Assembly (NCBI GenBank): GCA_019873625.1
Contig: JAIOAW010000013.1
Location: forward strand, 1 to 64,000
Length of the DNA stretch: 64,000 nucleotides
From: Chloroflexota bacterium
GTDB lineage: Bacteria > Chloroflexota > Anaerolineae > UBA1429
Direction: 5' to 3'
Numbering within the stretch: the first letter of the stretch is position 1; each line of letters opens with the position of its first letter. Both the position numbers and the translations under genes were made by a program. Below are positions 25,619 to 39,510 of the stretch, piece by piece. The notes under the pieces are model-generated. The model ran no database searches and was not told the origin of the DNA. It was given only the letters and a program-made list of their open reading frames with translations.

Positions 25619-28600
25619 TTACTCCCTCCCGAACACCTGGGGGTAGCGCCGAATCTGCTCTCGCAGGTCCTGATCATAACGGATGACGATCACCTGGTAA
25701 CCCCTCCTGCGTAAAGCATCTCGCAAAGACTCGTCTTGGGCGCGTTGAGCCGGTTCATCGTGGACGGCGCCATCGCAAAAAACGCAGATATCCGGCTCAT
25801 AGAAGAAATCGGGCCTGCAATGTGGGTCAACGAGTTGTCGCTGGGCATCGTCAGGCAGGCGGAACCTGCCCTGGGCAAGGACGTCGAGAAAACGCCTCTC
25901 CAAATCCGAGCGTGCGTCGGTAAGGGCGCGTAGCCAAGCCCACTGCTCCTCCCAAGACCTTCCGCCAACCCGAGGCAGTGTGCGGCTGTGGGCGATGCCC
26001 AAAAGGATGTCGCGTATCCGGTGGCGGTTCAGAGATAGGGCATCGGCCTGGTTGCTGAAACTCAAAAGGCATTCATAACAGGCCGCGTAACAATCCGGCT
26101 TCTGGTCGCTCCCTTGCTCATCATAGTGGATGCGCCGAAGGGCGGCTTGTGCGACCTGCGCCAAGGCATTGGCCTCTTCCACGAGGCGGCGCAATACGCC
26201 GCTTCCCCCCTCCGACGTTTCGTAGAGCAAAATGGCACGATTCTCCCCTTCGCCTAGGCATTCGGTGGCAAGTTCATCCTCCTCCAGTTGATAAACCTCT
26301 TCCAGCCCCCTCTGCAAGGCATATTGCAGCGTCGCCTCGATCGTTCTATCCGCGAAAAGATCCGGGACGACCGGGCGAATGAGAAGAAGGTTTTGCGTGA
26401 TCTGCACGGCCAGGTTCACGGTTTGCAGGTGTTTCTGCCCTTGAAGAAATGGGGGCTGCAGTGCGTCGCTCAATGCGATTTGACCACTCTCGAAATCCAC
26501 CTTAAAGCCGGAGGTTCGCGCAGCACGCCACCCCCGGTTAATCCGCAAGATCGTTGCTGCAGGCCCGTAGATGAGCCTCCACACAGCCTGCCCGTCAATG
26601 ACGACATCCGCCTCCTGCCGGCGCATCCCTTCTCCCTCCGGAGCGAATTGATAATACGTTTGGAGATCATAGCCATGCCTGCGGCGCTCCTCCTCATCGG
26701 AGGTGATGCGTTCCCGCCGACGCGTCTTGACGTTTGGCATATCGAGGAGGAGGGCGAGAACGCTGTTGGAGGCGTCGAAAAGGGCGTTGCAGGCTGGGCA
26801 ACGGTCAAAAGAAGGGTCGCAAAAGGTGCCACAGGTGTTGCACAGGCGCCTTCTTGTCAGCCGATCCTCCAACCCACCGGGCGGCGCCTGAAAGGCAATG
26901 ACCTCCCATTTGGCCCCTTCGTGGTAGAGGATGTTGCCCGGCGCGAACTCGCGCAGGGCCAAAAACCTAGGTCGCGCGATAAATTCGCCCTCCTTTCCGC
27001 GAGGCACCCAGGCACGGACGGGCAGCGCCGGAAAGTTATACCCAGGCAAAAAGCCTTCGCTCGCCAAGTAGCGATATGGGTAGAAATCCCCCTCTTCGCG
27101 CTGCACATCGATCTGCAGCAGGAGATTGCGTTGCCGTAACGCCTCCTGTTGGCGACGCAGCGCTTCGGCTTGGTCATCCTTTTTGCGGGCCGTGCACACT
27201 GCTTGCTGAGCCTCTTGGAGTTGGCCCATTGCCGCACGATACAGTTCGCGCCAGCGGTCGAAGGCGCGATCAAACTCCCGCGGGGCCTCTTGCAGCACAC
27301 GCCCAATCCAATCCTCAGTGAACCACGGCGTGGCATGCAATATGGCCATATCGGCTTGGAGGACTTGGCGCATTCTCTCGGCTAAGCGTTCTTGCACCCA
27401 CGGCCTAAGGCGGATCGCATCCGCCACCTCTTCCCGAAGTGGGAGGTCGTTTTGGGTCGTATCCAACACGTTTTCGATGGACCGCCCCAAAGAGAGGCGA
27501 ATCTCCCCGAGCCACATCGCGTGGAGGTGCGCCCGCAAAAGGGTTTCGTTGGCCAAATCCAGTTTCGGGGGGTGTACGCTGCCGGCTACCATCTCGTGGC
27601 GGTTCCGGAAGAAATACTGGTCGTGCGGGCTGAACGCGCCGCAATAGGTAAAAATAAGCCCTGCCTGCCCCTGGCGCCCGGCGCGGCCGCTGCGTTGGGC
27701 ATAGTTTGCGGGCGTGGGCGGCACGTTCCGCATATGGACGATATCCAAATCGGCAATGTCAATGCCGAGTTCCATCGTGGGCGAGCAAACCAGGTACGGG
27801 AGCCGCCGGCCCAATTCGCTTTCTTTGGTCATATCGCTCTTTTCCCAGCGGAACCGCCTTTCGCGGCGTTCGCGTTCGCCGGGGGCCACCACTTGGGCCG
27901 TATGCTCGCGGGCCTCGAGTTTGGCCAATTCTTCTACGGAGCCTTGGTAGAACTGCTGCAAGAACGCATTCACGGGGCGCTGAGTGCCCGCATAGGCCTC
28001 ATGTTTCACGCGGCGAGTGTAAAGCGGATCCATCGGGGGAGCCTGCCCCTCCCCATATCGCCAAACGAGGCAGGAGGCGTCGAGTTGATAACGAATGGCT
28101 TCCCCCGAGGCATTCGCTCGGACCAGCAGCCCGTGCTCGACAAGCCGCTGAAGGATATGCTCCATCACCCCGCGGTAATCAGCCGAGCCGATGCCCAGTT
28201 CCCTCATCAAAAAGCGGCCCAAGGCGCTTCGTTCGCTGAGGCTGAACCCCTCCGTTGGCTTGGCCGATTGGCCCCATTGGAAATAGTTGGCCGGCCTCAA
28301 TTCCTGCGTATCGGGATCTAGCCCCCAGAAATCGTTCAGATGCTGATCGCAAAGGCGGCGCAGCCGATCCTGCTCCTCCTCTGTAAGCACGCGCGTATGG
28401 ATGGCCAACTTGCGGCGGAAATGATCCAAAATCACCCGCAAAAGGCGTTGGCGATCTTCCGGGTGCCTTTGTGCCATAGGGTGCCCAGCCCATGCGTGCT
28501 CATCGCGGCCAAGTTCCTCCAGACCGCGGTAGGCAATGTGCAACAGGCCCAATTCCTCCAGGTTGGGCTGAGTAACCCGCCAGCCGCGCCGCAGGTCTTC

Positions 28601-30682
28601 ATACAGGCGATATTCGGTGAGAGAGGTGAACGTCTTCCACACCTCTCGGGCGGCCTCGGTCTCAGGGTTGAGGTCAGGGTTTTGGGCAATATCTCGCAAG
28701 GTGAACCCTTTGCGCATCTCTTCGACAACGGCCTGGGCTATGCGGTCCGCCGTGAGGCCTGCCTTTTCCTTCTTGAGCGCCGCCACGAGGGATGTGCGCA
28801 CGGCCGCCAAGTGGATAAAATCGTTAAAGTGGCCCGCTTGAAGCGCGGCGTCTTGCCGATTATCGGTAAAGGTGAGCAGTTTATCCTGGGCCGCACGCAG
28901 CCGCGCCGCATGCCGGAGCAGCGACGTGCTCAGCATCGTGGTGGCGCTTGTACGCGCCTCGCTGGAGAGCGAGGCTAACTTGCGGAATTCCTCTTCGCGG
29001 CGCGTATAGAATTCGCCGCAGTTCAGGCAGAGCGCAAACGGCTCAGGTTGATACCACACTTTGACAGCACCTGCCACTTCCCCCGCGAAGAACCGCCCAT
29101 CGGGCCTTGCCCAATAGGCCTTGGGGATGCGCTCGCGATAGTCGGGTTTGAGGCGCCCTTTGCCATCTCGCCATTCCTCAGGCAACAGGTCTTGGCTCCA
29201 GTCGTTCTCCTCCGGGGCAAGCATCACATAGCCCGCCGCCGCACTCCCCTCCACCCCCACGCCTTGGGGCAGAAACCGATCTTCCACCTGGAGGACGTGA
29301 TAGTACTCCTGGCCGCACTGGCGGCAGAACCGCAAGGGGAAAAAGATCTTGTCTTCGCCCGTCTGTACTTCCCCGCCCAGGGTGAGCGCGCGCCGGTCGG
29401 CTGGCTCCAGCGTGGCCGAGACCGTGCGCCCTTGGGCGATGAATTGGTGCAGTTTGAAGGCAAAGGCCCGGGTGCCGTCCTCGCGCATCAAACGGCCGCC
29501 CACACTCAGCCACTCGCGAAGCCGCTCGACGCACTGCTCTTGAGGGGCGCCCGTCCATTCGGCGAGCTGGCCCGCCGCCTCGGCCAGCGTCTGCGGGATG
29601 CGCCGGCGGTACCCCCCTTCGCCATCCGGTTCGAGGCCGAACGTGTGTTCAATCCACCGAGAGAGGGGGTGCCGCCGGTATGCCTCAAGGGAGGCAGGCG
29701 GAGGATCCTCCAGCGCCTGGCGCAGTTCCTCCGCCGCAGGCTCTCCCCCCTCCGTGAATGGCTCGAGCGTCTCCTCGATGATATCCTCCTCGCCAAAGGG
29801 GTGCCCAAAAAGCCGCGCGGCGAAATCGGCCACGGCCTGGCGGCGTTCTGCGGGGCTAGCCTGGCGCGAGGCGATCATCGTGGCAGAAGTGCCCACGTGC
29901 ACCACATCGGGCGCGGCCGCGCACTCTTTGAGGCGGCGGATGAGCATCGCCACATCGGCCCCTTGCCGCCCACGGTAGGTATGCAGTTCATCAAACACGA
30001 GGAAATGCAGGCCGCCCTTCTCTTTATCGAGAAATTGCCGATCCTCCGGGCGCACGAGGATCAACTCGGCCATCATATAGTTCGTCAGGAGGATATGTGG
30101 CGGTTGGGCGCGCATCGCGTGGCGTTCTTCTTCGCTCGTCTCGCCGGTGTAACGGGCAAAGGTCACCGGGAACTCTCGCCCTGTGCGCTCTTGATAGCCC
30201 CTTTTGAGCATCTCGAGCGCTTGCAGTTGCGAGTTGACCAAGGCATTCATCGGGTAAACGATGAGCGCGACCGTCTGACCGGCCGCAAGGCCTTGGCGCA
30301 GAATGTATTCCACAATGGGCAAAAAGTAGCAGAGGCTTTTGCCCGAGCCAGTGCCGCTCGTAACCACGTAACTCTTGCCGCGCAGGGCCTTCTCGAGCGA
30401 TTGGGCCTGGTGTTGATAGAGCCGATACGGCTCGCCCTGCGGCGTGCAAAAGGCGCGCGCCGCCTCGCGATGCAAAAGCCCTCGGCGGGCCAGATCTTCC
30501 ACCGTGGGGCCGCGCTTGTAGGAGGGGCTGAGTTGCAGAAGGAAATCCGGCCAGAGGGCGGCCTCCTCGCTCAAGGTGCGATCCACATACTCGCGGATGC
30601 GCCCATCGGCGATGGTGTGAAAGGCCCGTACAAAATCCGCGTAATCGGCCAAGGCAGTAGAATGGAGGGTAAAAATGGTCAT
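25619..30682 (-). CDS. DrmA/DruE-like DEAD-box helicase with DUF1998 and C-terminal nuclease-like domain
   Basis: 1,687 residues. It is an SF2 helicase of the COG1205 (MrfA/YprA-like) group: Walker A SGTGSGKS (109-116), DELH box (FDELHTYRGRQG), TSAT, and a C-lobe ending RSGRAGRQGQAG. A Cys cluster (CNTCGTFCDPSFDRCPACN, about 1,285) and DUF1998 with CYAACYECLLSF (about 1,530) follow. The last 90 residues resemble a Vsr/DUF559-type PD-(D/E)XK nuclease (RPDFFYEPDICVFCDGAVH). It is the third gene of a probable antiphage operon, 15 nt after the methyltransferase, with GGAG before the ATG. No separate drmB or drmC lies downstream. It may combine roles split among DISARM subunits (inference). Confidence 0.85.
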   Translation of the reverse strand: MTIFTLHSTALADYADFVRAFHTIADGRIREYVDRTLSEEAALWPDFLLQLSPSYKRGPTVEDLARRGLLHREAARAFCTPQGEPYRLYQHQAQSLEKALRGKSYVVTSGTGSGKSLCYFLPIVEYILRQGLAAGQTVALIVYPMNALVNSQLQALEMLKRGYQERTGREFPVTFARYTGETSEEERHAMRAQPPHILLTNYMMAELILVRPEDRQFLDKEKGGLHFLVFDELHTYRGRQGADVAMLIRRLKECAAAPDVVHVGTSATMIASRQASPAERRQAVADFAARLFGHPFGEEDIIEETLEPFTEGGEPAAEELRQALEDPPPASLEAYRRHPLSRWIEHTFGLEPDGEGGYRRRIPQTLAEAAGQLAEWTGAPQEQCVERLREWLSVGGRLMREDGTRAFAFKLHQFIAQGRTVSATLEPADRRALTLGGEVQTGEDKIFFPLRFCRQCGQEYYHVLQVEDRFLPQGVGVEGSAAAGYVMLAPEENDWSQDLLPEEWRDGKGRLKPDYRERIPKAYWARPDGRFFAGEVAGAVKVWYQPEPFALCLNCGEFYTRREEEFRKLASLSSEARTSATTMLSTSLLRHAARLRAAQDKLLTFTDNRQDAALQAGHFNDFIHLAAVRTSLVAALKKEKAGLTADRIAQAVVEEMRKGFTLRDIAQNPDLNPETEAAREVWKTFTSLTEYRLYEDLRRGWRVTQPNLEELGLLHIAYRGLEELGRDEHAWAGHPMAQRHPEDRQRLLRVILDHFRRKLAIHTRVLTEEEQDRLRRLCDQHLNDFWGLDPDTQELRPANYFQWGQSAKPTEGFSLSERSALGRFLMRELGIGSADYRGVMEHILQRLVEHGLLVRANASGEAIRYQLDASCLVWRYGEGQAPPMDPLYTRRVKHEAYAGTQRPVNAFLQQFYQGSVEELAKLEAREHTAQVVAPGERERRERRFRWEKSDMTKESELGRRLPYLVCSPTMELGIDIADLDIVHMRNVPPTPANYAQRSGRAGRQGQAGLIFTYCGAFSPHDQYFFRNRHEMVAGSVHPPKLDLANETLLRAHLHAMWLGEIRLSLGRSIENVLDTTQNDLPLREEVADAIRLRPWVQERLAERMRQVLQADMAILHATPWFTEDWIGRVLQEAPREFDRAFDRWRELYRAAMGQLQEAQQAVCTARKKDDQAEALRRQQEALRQRNLLLQIDVQREEGDFYPYRYLASEGFLPGYNFPALPVRAWVPRGKEGEFIARPRFLALREFAPGNILYHEGAKWEVIAFQAPPGGLEDRLTRRRLCNTCGTFCDPSFDRCPACNALFDASNSVLALLLDMPNVKTRRRERITSDEEERRRHGYDLQTYYQFAPEGEGMRRQEADVVIDGQAVWRLIYGPAATILRINRGWRAARTSGFKVDFESGQIALSDALQPPFLQGQKHLQTVNLAVQITQNLLLIRPVVPDLFADRTIEATLQYALQRGLEEVYQLEEDELATECLGEGENRAILLYETSEGGSGVLRRLVEEANALAQVAQAALRRIHYDEQGSDQKPDCYAACYECLLSFSNQADALSLNRHRIRDILLGIAHSRTLPRVGGRSWEEQWAWLRALTDARSDLERRFLDVLAQGRFRLPDDAQRQLVDPHCRPDFFYEPDICVFCDGAVHDEPAQRAQDESLRDALRRRGYQVIVIRYDQDLREQIRRYPQVFGRE

Positions 30683-30697
30683 AGAGGACTCCTCTTT

Positions 30698-33600
30698 CTA
30701 TGCACCCACCGCTGGATGGGGTTTGCGCCCATCGCCGCTGGCCTCGCCTTTTACCAAGCGTTCCCAGGCCTCTAGGATGAGGCGCCGCGTGCGATATTCG
30801 CCGTATTCGCGCATCTCCTTTTCCTTCAGGGCGCGGAAGGTCTCGCTAGGGAAGTCGCTCTTGGCGGAGCGCGCCGCGTACCCTTGCGGGTCGAGCGGAT
30901 CTTCCACCTCCTCCCAGGGGTCTAGGATATCCGCCAATTCCTTTTCCGTCAGGTCGGCCGGGTCCAGGATGTAGCGCAGTTGCTTGCGCGTCAAGCCATA
31001 AAGGCGGGCATAGTAGGCGTCCAACTCGGCGCGCAACACGGCGCGGCGGGCCTCATCCCAAAGGAAGGGAGGAAGGCCCTCACCCCCTGGCACCCCCTCT
31101 CCCAAGGCGTTGGGAGGATAGCCCTCACCCCCTTGCTCCCCCTCTCCCAACGCCTTGGGAGAGGGGGAGAGGAGAGGCCCCTTACCCCCTGTCTCCCTCT
31201 CCCCCAGCCGACTGGGAGAGGGGGCCGGGGGGCGAGATCCCCTGTTCTCCAGCCACTGCTGGTGCAGGCGGTGTTGAAGGGTCGTGCCATCGCCCAGGGG
31301 CATGGCGGCCGCTTCGCGCCAAAGGTCATCGGCAAAGGGCTTGAGGTCCCAGGCGGTGTAGGCAAGTTCCAACACCCGTGGGAGGATGAAGGCGAGGTCC
31401 TGCGGCCCGTAGGCCGAGGGGGGAAGGACGGGAAGTTGACGCAAGATGAACATGCTAAGCGAAACGCCCCCAATCTTTTGTCTCGTAACAAAGTCGAACA
31501 CGAGGCTGTCGAAATTGGCAAGACAAGCCGCAGCATCAAGAGCAGAGCGTTGACGGCCGAAGAAAACCAAAGGTGCCCCGTCGCTCACTCCCACCCTCGG
31601 CATTAGGCTGAAAATCGCCGTGCGCTCATCCGTCGCCCGCGCCACTTTGCGGAAGCCCACCAGCCAGCGGCGCTTCCAGCCTTGCAGGCGCTGCGCCACC
31701 TCGGTCGCGGGCACCCAGTACCAGGGCTGGGCGACGAAGGTCGGGTCGGCATGTTGGGCCTCGGAGGGCCTGGGCAACTGCGTGCTGGAGCGATCTGTCA
31801 CGCCCTCGTAGGTGCCGTAGCGGTGGTCGTAATGCCAGATCATCTTGGCCTCATAGAGGGGGAGGAAGAGGTCCTCACCCCCTGGCTCCCCCTCTCCCAA
31901 GGTGTTGGGGGGAAGGCCCTCACCTCCTTGCTCCTCCTCTCCCAAGGTGTTGGGAGAGGGGAATGGAGGATAGCCCTCACCCCCTGTCTTCCCCTCTCGC
32001 AAGGTGTTGGGAGAGGGGATCGGGGGATGGCCCTCACCCCCTTGCTCCCCCTCTCGCAAGGTGTTGGGAGAGGGGATCGGGGGATGGCCCTCACCCCCTT
32101 GCTCCCCCTCTCCCAAGGCGTTGGGAGAGGGGGCCGGGGGGTGAGGGCCACTGCCCCCCGTGTTGGGAGAGGGGGCCGGGGGGTGAGGGCCACTGCCCCC
32201 CGTGTTGGGAGAGAGGGCTAGGGGGTGAGGGCCGCTATCCCCTGCGTTGGGAGAGGGGGCCGGGGGGTGAGGGCGAGGCCCCAAGAGGGCCTCGGCAATG
32301 CGCTCGAGAACCCGGTCAATGTGGGAGAGCACTTCATCGTTCGTAAAGCGGATGACGCGCACGCCATAGTGGCGCAAGATTTGTTCCCGCGATTGATCCC
32401 GCTCCCTCTGCGAGGGTTCTCGGTGCACTGCACCGTCTATCTCGATGACCAGGCGGGCCTCATCGCAGTAAAAATCGGCGATGAACGGGCCGATGGGGTG
32501 CTGGCGGCGGAACTTTTTGCCCAACAGTTGGCGGTTGCGCAGGCACATCCACAGGAATGCTTCGGCCGTGGTAGCCTGGCGCCGCAGAAGCCGCGCACCC
32601 TCGACCAATGCGCGGATCGTCCGGCGCGACACTCTGATCTCACCCCCTTGCTCCCCTTCTCGCAGGGCGTTGGGAGGATAGCCCTCACCCCCTGTCTTCC
32701 CCTCTCCCAAGGTGTTGGGAGAGGGGATCGGGGGATGGCCCTCACCCCCTTGCTCCCCCTCTCCCAAGGCGTTGGGAGAGGGGGCCGGGGGATGGCCCTC
32801 ACCCTCTGTCTTCCCCTCTCCCAGTCGGCTGGGAGAGGGGGTCGGGGGGTGAGGGCCACCAGAAGCCGGCCGCACAAAGCGGTTGCCGCGGAGCACGTAG
32901 CCCGCCTGTTCCAATTGCTCCCGCGTGCGGAAAAGATGAGAATCGTTGGCCATATCGAACATTCTCAAGAAGCGCACGCCCCAAGGGTTGGCGGCATCTA
33001 CCTCACCCCCAATCTCCCTCTCTCCCAAGGTATTGGGAGAAAGGGTCGGAGACTGGCCCTCACCCCTTGTCTTCCCCTCTCCCAAGGCGTTGGGAGAGGG
33101 GAATGGGGGATGGCCCTCACCCCCTTGCTCTCCCTCTCCCAGCCGGCTGGGAGAGGGGGTCGGGGGGTGAGGGCCTTCCCTTACCAGGACAGGCACCCGG
33201 TTGTAAATGGCGCGGGTCAGGTCGGCATCCTGCCGGGTGCGGAAGATGGGCACCGTCAATGTGTTCGGGTTAAGGCGCTCGATATCCCCACGCCCCAAGG
33301 TAAAGACGCGGCGTGGATCGCGTAGGTGTTCAGCGCGGGTGCAGAAAAAGGCGAAGGCCATTTCCTCACCCCCTTTCTCCCCCTCTCCCAGTCGCCTTGG
33401 AGGAGGAGACGGAAGGCGCCCCTCACCCCCTGTTTCCCCCGCTCCCAACGCCTTGGGAGAGGGGGCTGGGAGGCGTCCCTCACCCCCTGTTTCCCCCTCT
33501 CCCAGTCGTCTTGGAGAGGGGGACGGAAGGCGTCCCTCACCCCCTGTTTCCCCCTCTCCCAGTCGTCTTGGAGAGGGAGACGGAAGGCGCCCCTCACCCC

Positions 33601-36600
33601 CTTTCTCCCCCTCTCCCAGTCGTCTTGGAGAGGGGGCTGGGAGGCGTCCCTCACCCCCTGTTTCCCCCTCTCCCAGTCGTCTTGGAGAAGGAGACGGAAG
33701 GCGCCCCTCACCCCCTTTCTCCCCCTCTCCCAACGCCTTGGGAGAGGGGGCTGGGGGGTGAGGGCCACCGCGCAGGGTGAGCAAACAGAACTTGTAACTG
33801 CGATGTACGTCCGGGAAAATGCCTTCGCGGTTCTCAAAATCGAACAGACTGGCCAGCTGACCCTTTGTTACCAAATTCGCAAAAAAGTATTTGTTCGTAT
33901 CATCCGTGGCGATGCCCGTCGGCACGATGACCCCTGCGCGCCCCTGGGGGTTGAGCAGGGCGCGCATCCGCTCAGCAAATACCGAATAAGTGTTAATATC
34001 TCCTCGCCCGGTAAGGGGGTACTGCCCACTCCCGCGCAAGAAGCGGCTCGTGCTTTCGGCGATGTGCAGGGCTCCTCGATATTCATTCCAAAGCGCCGGG
34101 TTCTTCCGCTCAAGTTGTGCGATGAGGCGCTTGCGCGCGGCGGCGTTGGGCGCAAGGGCGATCTGCGCGTCGCGCGAAGCGAAAAACTCTTGCTCTTGCA
34201 GTTTGATGCGCTCCCACGGTGGGTTGCCCAAGATGACATCAAACCCGCCGCGGGCGGTCGCCCCCTCCCCCCCTACCTCCCCCTCTCCCAACGCCTTGGG
34301 AGAGGGGGCCGGGGGGTGAGGGCCACCGTCCAACGCCTTGGGAGGGGGGGCCGGGGGGTGAGGGCCACCGTCCAACGCCTTGGGAGAGGGGGCCGGGGGG
34401 TGAGGGCCCCGCGCGAACACTTCGGGGAATTCGAGCGACCAATGGAAAAAGCGCAACGTCTGGGCGAGCACCTCCGCCCGGGCCAAAACCTGCTTGGGAA
34501 CGGACTGCTCTGCCAAGGCGCGGCGCACCACGCCGGTGGTGATGCCGCTCAGCCCCAAGCCCCCTTCTTGTGCCGCAGGGGCGAAGGATTGGAAGAAGGC
34601 CGCCACCCATAGGTCGCACGCCTCTTTCAAACGCGCCCAGTTCGAATCTTGGGCGCGCCGGGCATAGAGCGCATGCTTCTTGCGGATTTCCTCGGGCGAA
34701 TCATCGGGGATGGCCTCCAACTGCCAACCCAGCCGAGCCAATTGGCCCGTGGGGTCCTGGCGTTGTTCCAGAATCAAGGGCAGTTGCCCGGCGCGCTCTT
34801 GGCGGTTCTGGTTCCTCAAGCGCGTGGCCGTCGCCTTATCCTCCCCTTGCAGCGCCGTAAAGGCCTCATCGGGCAGGCCCTCTTTGAGGACGCTCATATC
34901 GAACACGCCCACGAGCGAATCTCCACATTTGATGCGGTGTTCGAGGAAGGTCAGCGGCTTGCCCTCCGCATGAGATTCGAGCCAAAGCGCCACCTGGGCG
35001 AGTTCTACGGCGAGGGGATTTTTGTCCACACCGTAGATACAGTGGGCCACTACGTCGCGGACGGCCTCGCGCACGCGCTCGGGGGCCGGTTCGTCCTCGC
35101 CTGTGCGGAGGCGGGCCAATTCCTTGCCCAAGCGACGGGCCGCCGCCAAAAGAAAATGGCCAGAGCCACAGGCTGGGTCGCACACTTTGATAGAGAGGAG
35201 GGCTTGCTCCTTTTCCGCCGCCGTCTTGGCTCGGCTTAGGCGCTCTGCGATCACGGGTTCAAGCGCACTGCGGATCAACTCGGCCACGAGTTGCGGCGGC
35301 GTGTAGTATGACCCGGTGGACTTGCGCTCTGAGCCAGGGGCAAGGTCAAACGTAAGGCGGCCCAACGCCTTCTCTTGGATGTGAGGGTGAAAGTCGAGCA
35401 GGCTTTCGTACACGGACCCTAATTCTTCGGTATCTAGCGCGGCATAGTTCACACGGCGGGCTTGGGCTGAGGCGCTCTCCTGGTAATAGGCCAAGTGCCG
35501 GAAGGCCCCCAGCAGGCGCCGATTCGTGATGAGCGCTTCATCCAGGGCCAGGCTTTCAAACAATTCCCCATTCAACGGCGACGTGCCGAGCAAAGCGGCC
35601 ATTTTTTCATCGCGCAGGATGTGCCAGAGGGCGCGCAACGAGAGCCAGATATCCACATCGTCCGTATAGGCGGCATAGTTATCGGCCAGGCGGCGCAGCC
35701 GCGTGACGCCGTAATGTTCCAGATAGATAGGGTCTCGGCTGATGATTCCGCGCTCTTCGGAGACGAGGAGGAAGAGAAAGCGATACACCAACCGCAAGAG
35801 TTCGCGGTAGAAGGCCGCCGCGCCGTTCTCGCGCACCCAGGCCCGCAGAGATTGGCTCCCCTCATGCTCCAAGAAACCGTTGCCCAATTCGCGCAGGCAT
35901 TGCTCCACACCCTCGCGCAAGTGTTCGCGCACCCGGCCGCCTTGCTCCACAGAGAAACGGTAATACTGCTCAAGCCAACATTCGTCGGGCCGGCCATCCC
36001 CTCTGGGCAAACGCGTGCGGTGCAACAGGCGGTAAAGGAGGACGAAATCGTCAAACCGCTCCTCTTCAATGAGGGCCTCTATATCGAATTCCACATACGC
36101 CTGGCGGCGCACATAGGTGGAATTGCGCAAAAGGCGCACGATGCGCCCGTTGGTCACCAGGCCCCAAAGTGCTTCGCTGCGGTTGAGGTACTCTTGCACC
36201 AGGGCATGCGGAGAAAGGCGCGGCCGGCTGGAAGGGGCCAGGCGCCCCAAATCTTGCCGGTAGCCGACGATGTGTACAGGCGGCGCGAACTCGCCCTCGC
36301 CGGCACGGTGCGAAATGGCGAACGATAGCCCACCCACCTCGTACGCGCGGGGGTTGTAACGCAACTCGTAGCCCAACAGGTTAAAGAAGGGGATCATCCA
36401 CATAACGCGCGTATCCGTCGTGGCCGAATCCTCTTCTGGCAACCTTGCCAGGCGGTTTTTGAAGATGCGCCACTGGGCACGGACCTCTTGAAACGTCTGT
36501 GCGGCCTCATCCGTCACACTGCGCCGCCCTTCGAGGCCAAAATCGCGTGGGGTTTGCCCAGGCAGGCTCCCATTGGCCAGTGCCTCAAAGAGATCGGGGC

Positions 36601-36643
36601 TAAATAAACCACCTTCGATGCGCAAACTGGGGAAGACGTTCAT
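30698..36643 (-). CDS. Adenine-N6 DNA methyltransferase (DrmMI/PglX-like) interrupted in frame by repeat arrays and an endonuclease domain
   Basis: 1,981 residues from ATG 36643, which overlaps the SNF2 stop by 4 nt (ATGA), with GGGAGG upstream. It has an N-terminal alpha/beta region, an SAM-binding motif DPACGSGHFLL (about 490), catalytic NPPW (about 805) and a C-terminal target-recognition/helical part. The body matches Eco57I/PglX/DrmMI-type m6A methylases, which normally run about 1,200-1,400 residues. The excess of roughly 600 residues is six runs of PHPPAPSPxxLGEGExGGEG-like repeats plus a whole DUF559 endonuclease. All lie between conserved blocks, and the reading frame is intact. It is probably the self-marking enzyme of the defence operon; activity with the inserts is uncertain. 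Confidence 0.88.
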   Translation of the reverse strand: MNVFPSLRIEGGLFSPDLFEALANGSLPGQTPRDFGLEGRRSVTDEAAQTFQEVRAQWRIFKNRLARLPEEDSATTDTRVMWMIPFFNLLGYELRYNPRAYEVGGLSFAISHRAGEGEFAPPVHIVGYRQDLGRLAPSSRPRLSPHALVQEYLNRSEALWGLVTNGRIVRLLRNSTYVRRQAYVEFDIEALIEEERFDDFVLLYRLLHRTRLPRGDGRPDECWLEQYYRFSVEQGGRVREHLREGVEQCLRELGNGFLEHEGSQSLRAWVRENGAAAFYRELLRLVYRFLFLLVSEERGIISRDPIYLEHYGVTRLRRLADNYAAYTDDVDIWLSLRALWHILRDEKMAALLGTSPLNGELFESLALDEALITNRRLLGAFRHLAYYQESASAQARRVNYAALDTEELGSVYESLLDFHPHIQEKALGRLTFDLAPGSERKSTGSYYTPPQLVAELIRSALEPVIAERLSRAKTAAEKEQALLSIKVCDPACGSGHFLLAAARRLGKELARLRTGEDEPAPERVREAVRDVVAHCIYGVDKNPLAVELAQVALWLESHAEGKPLTFLEHRIKCGDSLVGVFDMSVLKEGLPDEAFTALQGEDKATATRLRNQNRQERAGQLPLILEQRQDPTGQLARLGWQLEAIPDDSPEEIRKKHALYARRAQDSNWARLKEACDLWVAAFFQSFAPAAQEGGLGLSGITTGVVRRALAEQSVPKQVLARAEVLAQTLRFFHWSLEFPEVFARGPHPPAPSPKALDGGPHPPAPPPKALDGGPHPPAPSPKALGEGEVGGEGATARGGFDVILGNPPWERIKLQEQEFFASRDAQIALAPNAAARKRLIAQLERKNPALWNEYRGALHIAESTSRFLRGSGQYPLTGRGDINTYSVFAERMRALLNPQGRAGVIVPTGIATDDTNKYFFANLVTKGQLASLFDFENREGIFPDVHRSYKFCLLTLRGGPHPPAPSPKALGEGEKGGEGRLPSPSPRRLGEGETGGEGRLPAPSPRRLGEGEKGGEGRLPSPSPRRLGEGETGGEGRLPSPSPRRLGEGETGGEGRLPAPSPKALGAGETGGEGRLPSPPPRRLGEGEKGGEEMAFAFFCTRAEHLRDPRRVFTLGRGDIERLNPNTLTVPIFRTRQDADLTRAIYNRVPVLVREGPHPPTPSPSRLGEGEQGGEGHPPFPSPNALGEGKTRGEGQSPTLSPNTLGEREIGGEVDAANPWGVRFLRMFDMANDSHLFRTREQLEQAGYVLRGNRFVRPASGGPHPPTPSPSRLGEGKTEGEGHPPAPSPNALGEGEQGGEGHPPIPSPNTLGEGKTGGEGYPPNALREGEQGGEIRVSRRTIRALVEGARLLRRQATTAEAFLWMCLRNRQLLGKKFRRQHPIGPFIADFYCDEARLVIEIDGAVHREPSQRERDQSREQILRHYGVRVIRFTNDEVLSHIDRVLERIAEALLGPRPHPPAPSPNAGDSGPHPLALSPNTGGSGPHPPAPSPNTGGSGPHPPAPSPNALGEGEQGGEGHPPIPSPNTLREGEQGGEGHPPIPSPNTLREGKTGGEGYPPFPSPNTLGEEEQGGEGLPPNTLGEGEPGGEDLFLPLYEAKMIWHYDHRYGTYEGVTDRSSTQLPRPSEAQHADPTFVAQPWYWVPATEVAQRLQGWKRRWLVGFRKVARATDERTAIFSLMPRVGVSDGAPLVFFGRQRSALDAAACLANFDSLVFDFVTRQKIGGVSLSMFILRQLPVLPPSAYGPQDLAFILPRVLELAYTAWDLKPFADDLWREAAAMPLGDGTTLQHRLHQQWLENRGSRPPAPSPSRLGERETGGKGPLLSPSPKALGEGEQGGEGYPPNALGEGVPGGEGLPPFLWDEARRAVLRAELDAYYARLYGLTRKQLRYILDPADLTEKELADILDPWEEVEDPLDPQGYAARSAKSDFPSETFRALKEKEMREYGEYRTRRLILEAWERLVKGEASGDGRKPHPAVGA
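31074..31238. repeat. Palindromic repeat array A (about 3 units)
   Basis: Tandem copies of a roughly 57-bp GC-rich imperfect palindrome: CCCTCACCCCC...CTCCCAA, short loop, TTGGGAG...GGGTGAGGG. Read on the minus strand it encodes RPPAPSPSRLGERETGGKG-like units. It lies near the C-terminal end of the methyltransferase, after QQWLENRG. One unit carries an internal deletion. Confidence 0.9.
31872..32274. repeat. Palindromic repeat array B (about 8 units)
   Basis: The longest array. It contains full 57-bp units and shortened ones (NTGGSG type), in frame with the methyltransferase. It directly borders the 3' end of the nested endonuclease domain and rejoins the host protein just before LPLYEAKMIWHYDHR. 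Confidence 0.9.
32275..32640 (-). other. DUF559/Vsr-like endonuclease domain nested inside the methyltransferase gene
   Basis: About 122 codons, in frame, between arrays C and B. The domain opens RRTIRALVEGARLLRRQATT, then FLWMCLRNRQLLGKKFRRQH, IADFYCDEARLVIEIDGAVH, and YGVRVIRFTNDEVL. These are the full set of blocks of free-standing DUF559 proteins (about 115-130 residues, PD-(D/E)XK/Vsr fold), with the Asp and Glu-x-Asp metal residues intact. DUF559 is not a normal part of DrmMI/PglX proteins. Repeats on both sides suggest it arrived together with the arrays. There is no Met or RBS at its start, so it is made only as part of the host protein, unless initiation occurs internally. Confidence 0.85.
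32639..32856. repeat. Palindromic repeat array C (about 4 units)
   Basis: Same 57-bp family, lying upstream (in coding sense) of the nested endonuclease. Coding units read PHPPTPSPSRLGEGKTEGEG and variants. The last unit before the endonuclease is shortened to YPPNALREGEQGGE. Confidence 0.9.
32999..33174. repeat. Palindromic repeat array D (about 3 units)
   Basis: Same family, inserted between PVLVREG and ANPWGVRFLRMFDMAND of the methyltransferase. Its last unit is the most diverged (QSPTLSPNTLGEREIGGE). Confidence 0.9.
33363..33768. repeat. Palindromic repeat array E (about 7 units)
   Basis: A very regular tandem array with a 57-nt period. Several consecutive units (RLPSPSPRRLGEGETGGEG) are nearly identical, which indicates recent amplification. 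It is inserted between YKFCLLTLRGG and MAFAFFCTRAEHLRDPRR. Each unit on the coding strand has four closely spaced G-runs (3, 5, 5, 3). Confidence 0.92.
34257..34411. repeat. Palindromic repeat array F (about 3 units)
   Basis: Same family, inserted just before the catalytic block: host sequence runs LEFPEVFARG, then array, then RGGFDVILGNPPW. Two units are shortened (PKALDGG) and one is full length. Confidence 0.9.
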
Positions 36644-39510
36644 TCCGCACCTCCCACGGGGAGCAAGACGACCATACCCAGCAAATCCACCGGCCATTGA
36701 GGGCGAACGGTCAGCGGCCGCGCACGTTCCCCCACCGCCTGGCGGACCCGCTTGTGCGCTTCGGCTAATTCTTCAGCGCGGCGAGCGATGTGCGGCTCCA
36801 CCATCTTTTGCAGGCTTTCGGGGCCGTATATGCTCAGTTCTTGGGCGAGGAGGGCTTTTTTCTGTTCGCGGTCGAGGTTCGAGCCAGGTGTTGCTGCCGT
36901 CAAGAGGCGCAGGGCCTCCTCATCGGCCAGCCAACGCGGTTCGGAGGCTCTCCCCTGGTACCCCAATACGCGCACCTCCTCGAGTAAGAGCGGGGCGCGG
37001 GACGGCTCTTCGAGGAGGTAGCGCACGCGCAAGAGGAGTAACACCGTCCGCCGCGTCACCTCACGCGTTATCATCGCACCGCAGCGCGCAGCACGCGCTT
37101 CTCCCCCTTTGATGAGCGCCTCTTCGAACAAAAAGCGCGCCAGCGCCGCCACAAAGGGGTGGTTCCGCCCCAGATACTCGGCCCCCTCCGGCGTGGGCGA
37201 AAGGAAACTGACCCTCCAAGCCCCCTCTTTGCTTTTGGGGAGCGCAGAACACACCGCCTCGGGGCATTCGGGCGGCACGGGGTTGACTACGATGCGAAAC
37301 ACGCCCGTTGCCTTTTCCTTTTCCATCGGGAGGCCCACGCGTCGCGTCGCCTCGCGGACAAAAGATTCCACGGCCCCCGGGTCTCCCAAGACGGTGTCAG
37401 CCGCCTCTAACTCGCGCCGCACCTCCTCCGGCTTGAGGGTGCGCTGGGCAAACCGCGTGCGGGTTATCCGTTCGCGCTTTGCGTCGTTTTCCCAACGGCG
37501 GTGCAACTTGACGGCATCTGGCACATCCCAGCTCAGGGTCAATTGTCGGGAATCTTTTCGGCCATAGCCCCGCAGGAACAAGGCGTTCAGCACGGCCTCC
37601 GTCACGGTCTCGCTTTCCTCAGGCACGGGCACGTAGGTTCCCAAGGTCCGGTAAATCTCGCGGGCCTTGTTCAAGAGGACGTCAATGACGACGCCATCTA
37701 CTGGGTTATCTTGCCCATAATAACGCACAGCCTTCACTTTGGGCGCCGTCTGGCCGTAGCGATCCACCCGGCCTTCACGCTGTTCTAGGCGGTTGGGGTT
37801 CCAGGGCAGATCGTAATGGATGGCCGCCGTGAACTTTTCCTGAAGGTTGATGCCTTCTGAAAGGCAATCTGTGGCCACGAGCACACGGGGCGCCTCGGTG
37901 CGAATCTCCGCAATGCGATTGCGACGTTCGTCATCCCCCTGCCGACCCGTGATGCACACGACTTGCGCCGCAGATTGTTCACTAGCCAAATGGCTGCGCA
38001 AGGCGTTGGCTACATACTCCGCGGTGGCTACATAGCGGCACCAGACAATAGGATGATACCTTTCGACGAGCAGTTCCGAAACGATTCTGAGAAGGCTCGC
38101 CAGTTTCGTATCTTGCCCCTTCTCAACGATTGCGCTGGCCAAACGCGCCAGTTCGCGCAACGCCCTGCGCTCGTCTTCGGCGATGCCGCGGTCGCCCCCT
38201 TCGGGAGACGAAGGCGGAGGTTCATCTTCGGTGCGATCTTGGTCTGATTCAAAGATAAAACCGCGAAAATCGATCTCGTCCTCGGCTTCGGGTTCGCCGA
38301 GGGCTTGCCGGCGGGTCTCCAAGGCCGCAAGGGCCGCGGCTGGGCTGGACATCACGCAACGCAGCAAGGCGAGGGCACCCCAGTAGCGTACGCGGCGTTT
38401 GCGTTCTTCCAGTTTTTGCCCGGTGCGTACGATTTCGGCGCAAAAATCGTACGTCTTCTCAAAAAGGGCGCGGTAGGCTGGCGACAGTTGATAAGTCCTA
38501 TCAACCGCTTCGCGCTCGGGGAAGCAGTGATCGCCTTCCCAATAGTGCTCGATATCCTTTCGGGTCCGCTGGACAAAATGCCTTGCCAGTTCCCTCACTT
38601 GAGATTCACGCAGGTCATTCATATCCCATTCTGCAAAGCGCGGGTTCAGAAGGCCCAAAAGCGAACGGAAGGCCTGTTCAACGCCGCTATGTGGCGTGGC
38701 CGTGAGGAGGATGACGTGCCGCCCACTGTCTTGAGCCGCTGCGCACAAGAACTCGTAGCGCTGCTGCTGGCTCTTTTGGGTGGCCTGCGCTACCCCATGG
38801 GCCTCATCCACAATGAGTAGATCGGGCGGATCCAAAAGAAAGGCGTGCCGATTCCGTTCGCTCTTGACATAGTCTATGCTGATCACCTGGATGGGATAGT
38901 GCTGATAGATCGTCTGCAACGGCGGTTTGGCGCGCTCCAACTGGCCTACGGTGCCAGAACGGACGACGACCGCCTCGAGATTGAACTTTTCGCGCAACTC
39001 CTTGGCCCACTGATCGCACAGATAGGGTGGGCACAACACGGCCATACGCTTGATTTCGCGGCGCTCCCACAGTTCGCGCGCGATCAGGAGGGCTTCGATC
39101 GTTTTGCCAACACCCACATCATCGGCGATGAACAAACGCACCGGGCTGAGGCGCAGGGCCATCAAGAGAGGCACGAATTGGTAGGTGCGCGGACGGATGG
39201 ATATCTTGCCGAGAGAACGCAGGGGCGCCGCCCCTTCGCGTAACATCAACCGTGCCGCTTGCCATAACAGATAGGTACTCTCTCGAAAAGTCGCATCGGA
39301 CACGTCCTCCGCCCTAGGCAAAGGGAAACTCGCCGCTTGGGGGCGCTCTTCAGGCAACGTATAGGCCAGTAGATCCGTAATGCCTCTGTGCAGGGCTATG
39401 GCATCGTCGGTGGCACCTGTGAGCGGTCGGAGGAGATAAAGGGCGTCATCCTCATGGGGCAGCAGCACCCAATATCGGTTGCGTACTTGGACAATGGTGC
39501 CTGGTTGCAT
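36640..39510 (-). CDS. SNF2-family helicase/translocase, DrmD-like
   Basis: 956 residues, starting at ATG 39510 after GAGAGG. An N-terminal region leads to the RecA-like lobes: Walker A DDVGVGKTIEALL (about 130-141), DEAH-type IVDEAHGVAQ, TATPHSG, and the C-lobe EGINLQEKFTAAIHYDLPWN with RLEQREGRVDRYGQ. A C-terminal helical region follows. It is the first gene of the defence operon, coupled to the methyltransferase by an ATGA overlap. DrmD of DISARM class 1 has this family and this position. It is probably a DNA translocase without strand separation; its role in immunity is inferred from context. Confidence 0.87.
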   Translation of the reverse strand: MQPGTIVQVRNRYWVLLPHEDDALYLLRPLTGATDDAIALHRGITDLLAYTLPEERPQAASFPLPRAEDVSDATFRESTYLLWQAARLMLREGAAPLRSLGKISIRPRTYQFVPLLMALRLSPVRLFIADDVGVGKTIEALLIARELWERREIKRMAVLCPPYLCDQWAKELREKFNLEAVVVRSGTVGQLERAKPPLQTIYQHYPIQVISIDYVKSERNRHAFLLDPPDLLIVDEAHGVAQATQKSQQQRYEFLCAAAQDSGRHVILLTATPHSGVEQAFRSLLGLLNPRFAEWDMNDLRESQVRELARHFVQRTRKDIEHYWEGDHCFPEREAVDRTYQLSPAYRALFEKTYDFCAEIVRTGQKLEERKRRVRYWGALALLRCVMSSPAAALAALETRRQALGEPEAEDEIDFRGFIFESDQDRTEDEPPPSSPEGGDRGIAEDERRALRELARLASAIVEKGQDTKLASLLRIVSELLVERYHPIVWCRYVATAEYVANALRSHLASEQSAAQVVCITGRQGDDERRNRIAEIRTEAPRVLVATDCLSEGINLQEKFTAAIHYDLPWNPNRLEQREGRVDRYGQTAPKVKAVRYYGQDNPVDGVVIDVLLNKAREIYRTLGTYVPVPEESETVTEAVLNALFLRGYGRKDSRQLTLSWDVPDAVKLHRRWENDAKRERITRTRFAQRTLKPEEVRRELEAADTVLGDPGAVESFVREATRRVGLPMEKEKATGVFRIVVNPVPPECPEAVCSALPKSKEGAWRVSFLSPTPEGAEYLGRNHPFVAALARFLFEEALIKGGEARAARCGAMITREVTRRTVLLLLRVRYLLEEPSRAPLLLEEVRVLGYQGRASEPRWLADEEALRLLTAATPGSNLDREQKKALLAQELSIYGPESLQKMVEPHIARRAEELAEAHKRVRQAVGERARPLTVRPQWPVDLLGMVVLLPVGGAE

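What the first reader, a model, noticed from the sequence alone, without database searches (positions are those of the whole stretch)
31074..34411. Six in-frame palindromic repeat arrays carrying a DUF559 endonuclease inside one methyltransferase gene: a possible mobile unit that inserts into coding sequence
Seen directly: one ORF of 1,981 codons contains six arrays (about 28 units, 57-nt period) of a GC-rich palindrome. All are in frame and lie between conserved methyltransferase blocks. Arrays C and B flank a complete DUF559/Vsr-like nuclease domain with its metal residues. Known: DUF559 proteins have a PD-(D/E)XK/Vsr-type fold and usually stand alone. Inference: repeat plus endonuclease travel together, with the nuclease nicking or cutting at target sites and the repeats copied in by repair. 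This would be analogous in logic to REP/RAYT or homing systems, but without transposase or intein splicing. A period of 57 (3 x 19) keeps the host frame open.
Basis: partly seen in the sequence, partly recalled or inferred. Interest (0 to 1): 0.9.

Follow-up and report, generated by a model that had tools for sequence, protein, structure and literature searches.

The report
Mobile palindrome-nuclease element inserted inside genes
A bacterial DNA-methylating enzyme gene has been invaded, without breaking its reading frame, by copies of a tiny selfish DNA element made of a small DNA-cutting enzyme (DUF559) between palindromic end repeats; relatives of this element occur across many bacterial phyla and I found no earlier description of it as a mobile element.

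Summary
A 1999-aa Eco57I/DrmMI-like methyltransferase gene carries about 28 palindromic units in six in-frame arrays, with an intact DUF559 (Vsr-fold) nuclease domain between two of them. Array-free homologues (70-74% identical) show that the arrays sit in five linkers. The proposed link between repeat and nuclease is real and general. In 301 Chloroflexota genomes, 41 of 92 stand-alone DUF559 genes have hairpins within about 230 bp on both sides, against 8 of 672 control genes. A scan of other phyla gives 12-fold enrichment. Ends are CCC(Y)nCCC palindromes, sometimes with 50-90 bp terminal inverted repeats. In one genome about 11 short elements share these ends and are internally deleted DUF559 elements; several are flanked by 7-bp direct duplications (NNYTARN), the pattern of non-autonomous copies. 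Palindrome sequence follows the nuclease clade rather than the host genome. The same unit is inserted in frame in methionine synthase (empty, palindrome-only and full states) and in several methyltransferase families. Four of twelve palindrome-bearing genomes checked, the window's own included, have no RAYT transposase. I conclude that DUF559 plus cognate palindromic ends is a mobile element that works like REP/RAYT but with an unrelated nuclease. That DUF559 itself catalyses movement is inferred, not shown.

The parts
30698..36697 (-). Host gene: Eco57I / DrmMI-like DNA adenine methyltransferase carrying the insertions (probable start at 36643)
   Evidence: array-free homologues 70-74% identical
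34253..34408 (-). Array 1 (3 units), in the linker LEFPEVFA | GGFDVILGNPPW
33365..33769 (-). Array 2 (7 units), in the linker CLLTLR | MAFAFF
33002..33178 (-). Array 3 (3 units), in the linker VPVLVRE | NPWGVRFL
32639..32860 (-). Array 4 (4 units), just upstream of DUF559, in the linker GNRFVRPAS | LFLPLYEAK
32285..32602 (-). DUF559 (PF04480) nuclease domain, Vsr / I-Bth0305I fold, D43, E54, D56, H60 intact
31874..32278 (-). Array 5 (8 units), just downstream of DUF559
31073..31237 (-). Array 6 (3 units), in the linker WLENRG | PPFLW

Best explanation
The methyltransferase gene has been invaded by a compact mobile element. The element is a small Vsr-fold (DUF559) nuclease gene bracketed by cognate palindromic end units (here CCCTCACCCC-N-CCCCTCTCCC-loop-GGGAGAGGGG-N-GGGGTGAGGG); the ends also spread alone or as inverted pairs (REP/REPIN-like) and as internally deleted copies. 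Shown: nuclease and palindromes co-occur as one bounded unit in unrelated places; deleted derivatives have multiplied; the unit inserts in frame in loops of working genes; the nuclease is under purifying selection. Inferred: DUF559 recognises its cognate ends, makes a staggered or nicking cut at them and at a short target (NNYTARN with a 7-bp duplication in one family), and host repair completes insertion. In-frame survivors are kept because the units can be read through in the host frame and because frame-breaking insertions are lost; the tandem arrays then grow and shrink by slippage or recombination.
For: (1) Hairpins lie at 3-6 per kb within 200 bp of DUF559, on both sides, against about 0.25 per kb beyond 750 bp; both-sided hairpins at 41/92 stand-alone DUF559 genes versus 8/672 other genes in the same loci. 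(2) The same in at least 10 phyla, 2.56 versus 0.215 per kb; named cases in Deinococcus, cyanobacteria and Sphingomonas. (3) Same-genome copies are alike only between the ends, in unrelated flanks. (4) G111: shared inverted ends on DUF559 copies and on about 11 copies of 250-307 bp that are internal deletions of the DUF559 element, with 7-bp NNYTARN duplications (0 of 1881 mismatched pairings as good). (5) Ends dispersed without the nuclease in G168, G128 and the window's own genome. (6) Palindrome similarity tracks nuclease identity between genomes but is low between divergent nucleases of one genome (0.82 versus 0.51, P 6e-6). (7) MetH linker in empty, palindrome-only and full states. (8) Palindrome-rich genomes are DUF559 genomes (mean 34 versus 4.9). 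(9) dN/dS mostly 0.06-0.24, including MetH-embedded copies.
Against: No biochemical or mobility data. Clear target duplications were found in one family only (G111); G168 units show none. Hairpins were not detected within 250 bp of 33 of 122 DUF559 genes, so some copies are decayed, too imperfect for the detector, or not of this kind. PD-(D/E)XK-fold enzymes are not known to join strands, so the joining step must be left to the host or to another enzyme. The genome-level correlation is not corrected for phylogeny, and part of the co-divergence reflects orthologous insertions.
Confidence: 0.7

Rival explanations
1. Homing-type hitchhiking: the palindromes are an independent REP family, and DUF559 is a free-standing homing endonuclease that cuts palindromes and is copied into them by recombination, so the ends are target rather than part of the element.
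For: DUF559 is a sequence and fold relative of I-Bth0305I (HMM E 1e-5, Foldseek 2e-4). Palindromes greatly outnumber DUF559 genes in most genomes.
Against: G111 copies have long shared inverted ends outside the hairpin, internally deleted derivatives and target duplications; same-genome copies share identical outer ends in unrelated flanks; palindrome type follows the nuclease clade.
Confidence: 0.17
2. The palindromes are ordinary REPs moved by a Y1/HUH RAYT transposase, and DUF559 is an unrelated passenger.
For: GTAG-tagged REPs have been reported in Chloroflexi and REPs can lie inside coding regions (PMC3733652). Eight of twelve genomes checked do contain Y1_Tnp genes.
Against: The window's genome, G111, G101 and G133 have no Y1_Tnp at all. 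Flanks of 25 Y1_Tnp genes from the same genomes hold no CCCYYYCC palindromes. DUF559 flanks are enriched 12- to 20-fold.
Confidence: 0.05
3. DUF559 in the methyltransferase is the cleavage domain of a fused restriction-modification enzyme, and the repeats are flexible linkers.
For: Many in-frame hosts are DNA methyltransferases: Eco57I, MmeI, Type ISP, DUF1156, N6_N4.
Against: Insertion points differ even within one family (three sites in DUF1156 proteins). Methionine synthase is also a host. Homologues without DUF559 are common. Most DUF559 genes stand alone. Four linkers of the window gene have arrays but no nuclease.
Confidence: 0.05
4. DUF559 is a Vsr-type mismatch-repair enzyme and the palindromes are merely terminators or regulatory hairpins around small genes.
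For: Caulobacter VsrA (DUF559) is proposed to act in very-short-patch repair (PMC12907096), and the fold matches Vsr.
Against: Other small genes in the same loci show both-sided hairpins in only 4/364 cases. The hairpin sequence class is shared across phyla. The hairpins occur inside coding sequence in frame. Internally deleted derivatives exist.
Confidence: 0.03

Closest known systems
REP/REPIN sequences with RAYT (TnpA-REP) transposases
   Same: Dispersed short palindromes, often as inverted pairs, associated with one small nuclease gene that is itself flanked by the palindromes; many more repeats than enzyme genes; REPs occasionally inside genes (PMC3733652)
   Different: The enzyme is a Vsr-fold DUF559 protein, not a Y1 HUH enzyme; no RAYT in the window genome; palindromes are CCC(Y)nCCC..GGG(R)nGGG with CCCTCAC- or ACCTA-type outer ends
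EDxHD / Vsr-like homing endonucleases (I-Bth0305I, PDB 3r3p)
   Same: Sequence and fold relatives of DUF559; selfish logic; DUF559 also found inside inteins
   Different: Here bracketed by cognate palindromic or inverted ends, with non-autonomous derivatives and many insertion sites; no intron or intein in the window gene
Rickettsia palindromic elements (RPE)
   Same: Palindromic elements inserted in frame in many protein genes (PMC10969869, PMC3733652)
   Different: No nuclease was mentioned for RPEs in the passages read; here a nuclease gene travels in the element, in different phyla and with a different palindrome
Insertion sequences and their MITEs
   Same: Terminal inverted repeats, target duplications and internally deleted copies (G111)
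   Different: No DDE, HUH or serine/tyrosine transposase seen within the ends; the only protein is a roughly 120-aa Vsr-fold nuclease; whole element about 500-630 bp

Membership tests
REP/RAYT (REPIN) | Y1/HUH tyrosine transposase (PF01797) associated with the palindromes | tested here: not met
   None in the window genome, G111, G101 or G133; 0 of 25 Y1_Tnp flanks carry these palindromes
REP/RAYT (REPIN) | Dispersed palindromes, often in inverted pairs, far more numerous than enzyme genes | tested here: met
Homing endonuclease, EDxHD/Vsr-like | Homology to I-Bth0305I / Vsr nuclease fold with conserved acidic residues | tested here: met
Homing endonuclease, EDxHD/Vsr-like | Cleavage of the cognate empty allele followed by gene conversion | not testable with these tools
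   needs biochemistry or crosses
DNA transposon / IS with MITEs | Terminal inverted repeats, target duplications and internally deleted copies | tested here: met
   G111 family; inverted ends also in G128 and Deinococcus; duplications not seen in G168
DNA transposon / IS with MITEs | Encodes a transposase of a known class between the ends | tested here: not met
   Only DUF559 lies between the G111 ends in the copies examined
Rickettsia palindromic element | In-frame insertion of a palindromic unit in many unrelated protein genes | tested here: met
   Methyltransferases and MetH
Rickettsia palindromic element | Sequence membership in an RPE family | not tested
   no RPE sequences compared
Intein | Splicing domains around the nuclease | tested here: not met
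   No intein domain in the window protein; present in L145 and L131
Type IIG restriction-modification fusion | Conserved nuclease domain at a fixed position in the methyltransferase family | tested here: not met
   Array- and DUF559-free homologues are common; insertion points vary

The most novel reading that the evidence does not exclude
A phylum-crossing class of minimal mobile elements is driven by a lone Vsr-fold (DUF559) nuclease that recognises cognate palindromic ends. It spreads REP-like repeats and internally deleted copies through genomes, and inserts in frame into host genes without any splicing. It would explain a large share of the CCCTCTCCC- and CCCCCAATT-type repeats of Chloroflexota and cyanobacteria.
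Probability: 0.62. Interest if true: 0.92.

Novelty: categorically new. Interest (0 to 1): 0.86.

Why it matters
Short palindromic repeats are abundant in bacterial genomes, and outside RAYT-bearing lineages what spreads them is largely unexplained. If DUF559, a common domain still labelled of unknown function, is the mobiliser, it gives function to a widespread family, defines mobile elements of about 0.5 kb built on a PD-(D/E)XK-type nuclease, and supplies a source of in-frame linker insertions in proteins, including an enzyme as central as methionine synthase. The cognate pairing of nuclease clade with palindrome sequence makes it testable at once in vitro.

Tried and rejected
A profile scan of genome contigs with the diverse alignment failed because no stretch was conserved enough; a single-protein scan worked. 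The viral collection gave one distant hit with that query. The idea that the repeat is stop-free in all six frames was tested and is not generally true: several arrays have stops in some frames, so in-frame placement looks like selection rather than an inherent property. DUF559 relics between palindromes elsewhere in the own genome: none convincing. RAYT as mobiliser: absent from the window genome. Fused restriction enzyme: rejected because insertion sites vary. Literature: no paper found links DUF559 to palindromic repeats, but only open-licence papers are searchable and the I-Bth0305I paper is not held.
Full report
1. What is there. The window contains, on the minus strand, one open frame of 1999 codons (30698-36697). 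Its conserved parts are an Eco57I/DrmMI-type DNA methyltransferase, and residues 1366-1471 are a DUF559 domain (E 1.4e-33). Six arrays, about 28 units in all, of a GC-rich palindrome (CCCCTCTCCCAA-N4-TTGGGAGAGGGG within a 57-nt unit) lie at 31073-34408, every one in the host frame. The genome carries 99 such palindromes, with 2 matches for the reversed-pattern control. Aligning the protein with array-free homologues of 70-74% identity (G037, G146, G118) shows five insertion points, each a variable linker between conserved blocks such as LEFPEVFA | GGFDVILGNPPW and GNRFVRPAS | LFLPLYEAK. The latter linker holds array-DUF559-array. A homologue in G158 carries DUF559 in the same linker (L167).

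2. Both DUF559 genes of this genome behave alike. The genome has only two. The second lies in frame inside an unrelated methyltransferase of the Type ISP kind (the family is named from its relative L092) and is directly followed by another palindromic array of a different sequence, CCTTCCCC-gcaagc-GGGGAAGG.

3. The association is general. Of 301 Chloroflexota genomes, 142 have DUF559. Around the 122 best hits, exact GC-rich hairpins occur at 3.2-4.1 per kb in the 200 bp upstream and 5.7 per kb in the first 100 bp downstream, against about 0.25 per kb farther away. Nearly all are CCC(Y)nCCC..GGG(R)nGGG palindromes. For stand-alone genes, 41 of 92 have hairpins within about 230 bp on both sides; among 672 other genes in the same loci 8 do, and among small ones 4 of 364. 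Palindrome counts average 34 in DUF559-positive and 4.9 in DUF559-negative genomes (not phylogeny-corrected). A scan of other phyla (Acidobacteria, Alpha- and Betaproteobacteria, Bacteroidota, Clostridia, Calditrichota and others) gives 2.56 versus 0.215 hairpins per kb. Named plasmid cases include Deinococcus proteolyticus, where about 50-bp inverted ends flank DUF559, and cyanobacteria and Sphingomonas.

4. It is a bounded unit that moves. Copies within one genome match only between the ends and lie in unrelated flanks (L071/L074, L084/L102). In G111 the ends are terminal inverted repeats whose inner part is the palindrome. The same ends bound about 11 elements of 250-307 bp that are internally deleted versions of the DUF559 element: element bases 53-163, 186-245 and 510-593 are kept, and most of the nuclease gene is lost. 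Six of 13 G111 elements have exact 7-bp flanking duplications of the form NNYTARN; none of 1881 mismatched pairings does as well. No other gene was seen between the ends in the copies examined. In G168, G128 and the window's genome the end units are dispersed alone or as inverted pairs in unrelated flanks. G168 units show no clear duplication.

5. Nuclease and palindrome are matched. Between genomes, similarity of the flanking palindromes rises with nuclease identity; divergent nucleases in one genome have dissimilar palindromes (mean 0.51, against 0.82 for similar nucleases in different genomes; P 6e-6). Part of this is shared ancestry of orthologous insertions. On the DUF559 tree the palindrome label is scattered over the whole family, and in-frame insertion arose several times.

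6. In-frame insertion without splicing. Methionine synthase of one family shows three states at the linker EADIDEIINR | HEIAVHTLNN: empty, palindrome only, and palindrome-DUF559-palindrome. Other in-frame hosts are mostly DNA methyltransferases: DUF1156 at three different sites, MmeI, Type ISP, N6_N4. DUF559 copies, including those inside MetH, are under purifying selection (dN/dS mostly 0.06-0.24). A separate clade is the nuclease of inteins.

7. The enzyme. The predicted structure (pLDDT 86) matches PDB 3hrl, the homing endonuclease I-Bth0305I (3r3p) and E. coli Vsr. PMC9403480 also places DUF559 with the EDxHD homing family. Caulobacter VsrA, a DUF559 protein, causes DNA damage in cells lacking a methyltransferase (PMC12907096).

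8. Mechanism and rivals. The best reading is a minimal mobile element: DUF559 recognises its cognate ends, cuts there and at a short target, and the host completes insertion. Co-mobility, non-autonomous derivatives and in-frame insertion are shown by sequence; catalysis by DUF559 is inferred. RAYT as mobiliser is disfavoured: the window genome and three others with these elements have none, and RAYT flanks lack these palindromes. A homing gene landing in pre-existing palindromes is the strongest rival but does not explain the G111 derivatives.

9. Novelty. It works like REP/RAYT and, in coding sequence, like Rickettsia palindromic elements, but fails the defining RAYT test. No described mobile element built on DUF559 was found, within the limits of an open-licence library.

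Noticed in passing
L131, L145, L146, L152: DUF559 sits as the nuclease domain inside inteins of N6_N4-type DNA methyltransferases; these form one supported clade of DUF559
   Followed up: partly
L081, L121, L123, L129, L147, L197, L199, L204, L210, L217: Methionine synthase (MetH) carries the palindrome-DUF559-palindrome unit in frame between the folate and cobalamin domains; relatives are empty or have the palindrome alone
   Followed up: yes
L200, L202, L203, L207, L215, L216 (MetH linker): Other repeat-like peptides (QVDTxTGTQVD; GTGLAPVQGAGASPAPT) occupy the same MetH linker, so this linker accepts unrelated small inserts
   Followed up: no
L057, L060, L085, L143; L394 (Synechocystis sp. 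B12 plasmid): DUF1156 methyltransferase genes are hit repeatedly by DUF559 units at different sites and in different phyla; in Synechocystis the gene is split
   Followed up: partly
window 25619-39510: The methyltransferase is flanked by a DruE/MrfA-like helicase and a DpdE/DrmD-like SNF2 helicase, which looks like a defence operon
   Followed up: partly
window 25619-26000 (-): The C-terminus of the 1687-aa helicase (PDFFYEPDICVFCDGAVHDEP...RRRGYQVIVIRYDQDL) looks like a further Vsr/DUF559-like nuclease domain
   Followed up: no
L389, L390: Cyanobacterial repeats CCCCCTAAATCCCCCAATTCTGGGGGACTT flank DUF559 genes on Pseudanabaena and Picosynechococcus plasmids
   Followed up: partly
L393: A DUF559 unit lies inside the pnt transhydrogenase operon of a Sphingomonas plasmid, flanked by inverted CCTCCCCG palindromes
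   Followed up: no
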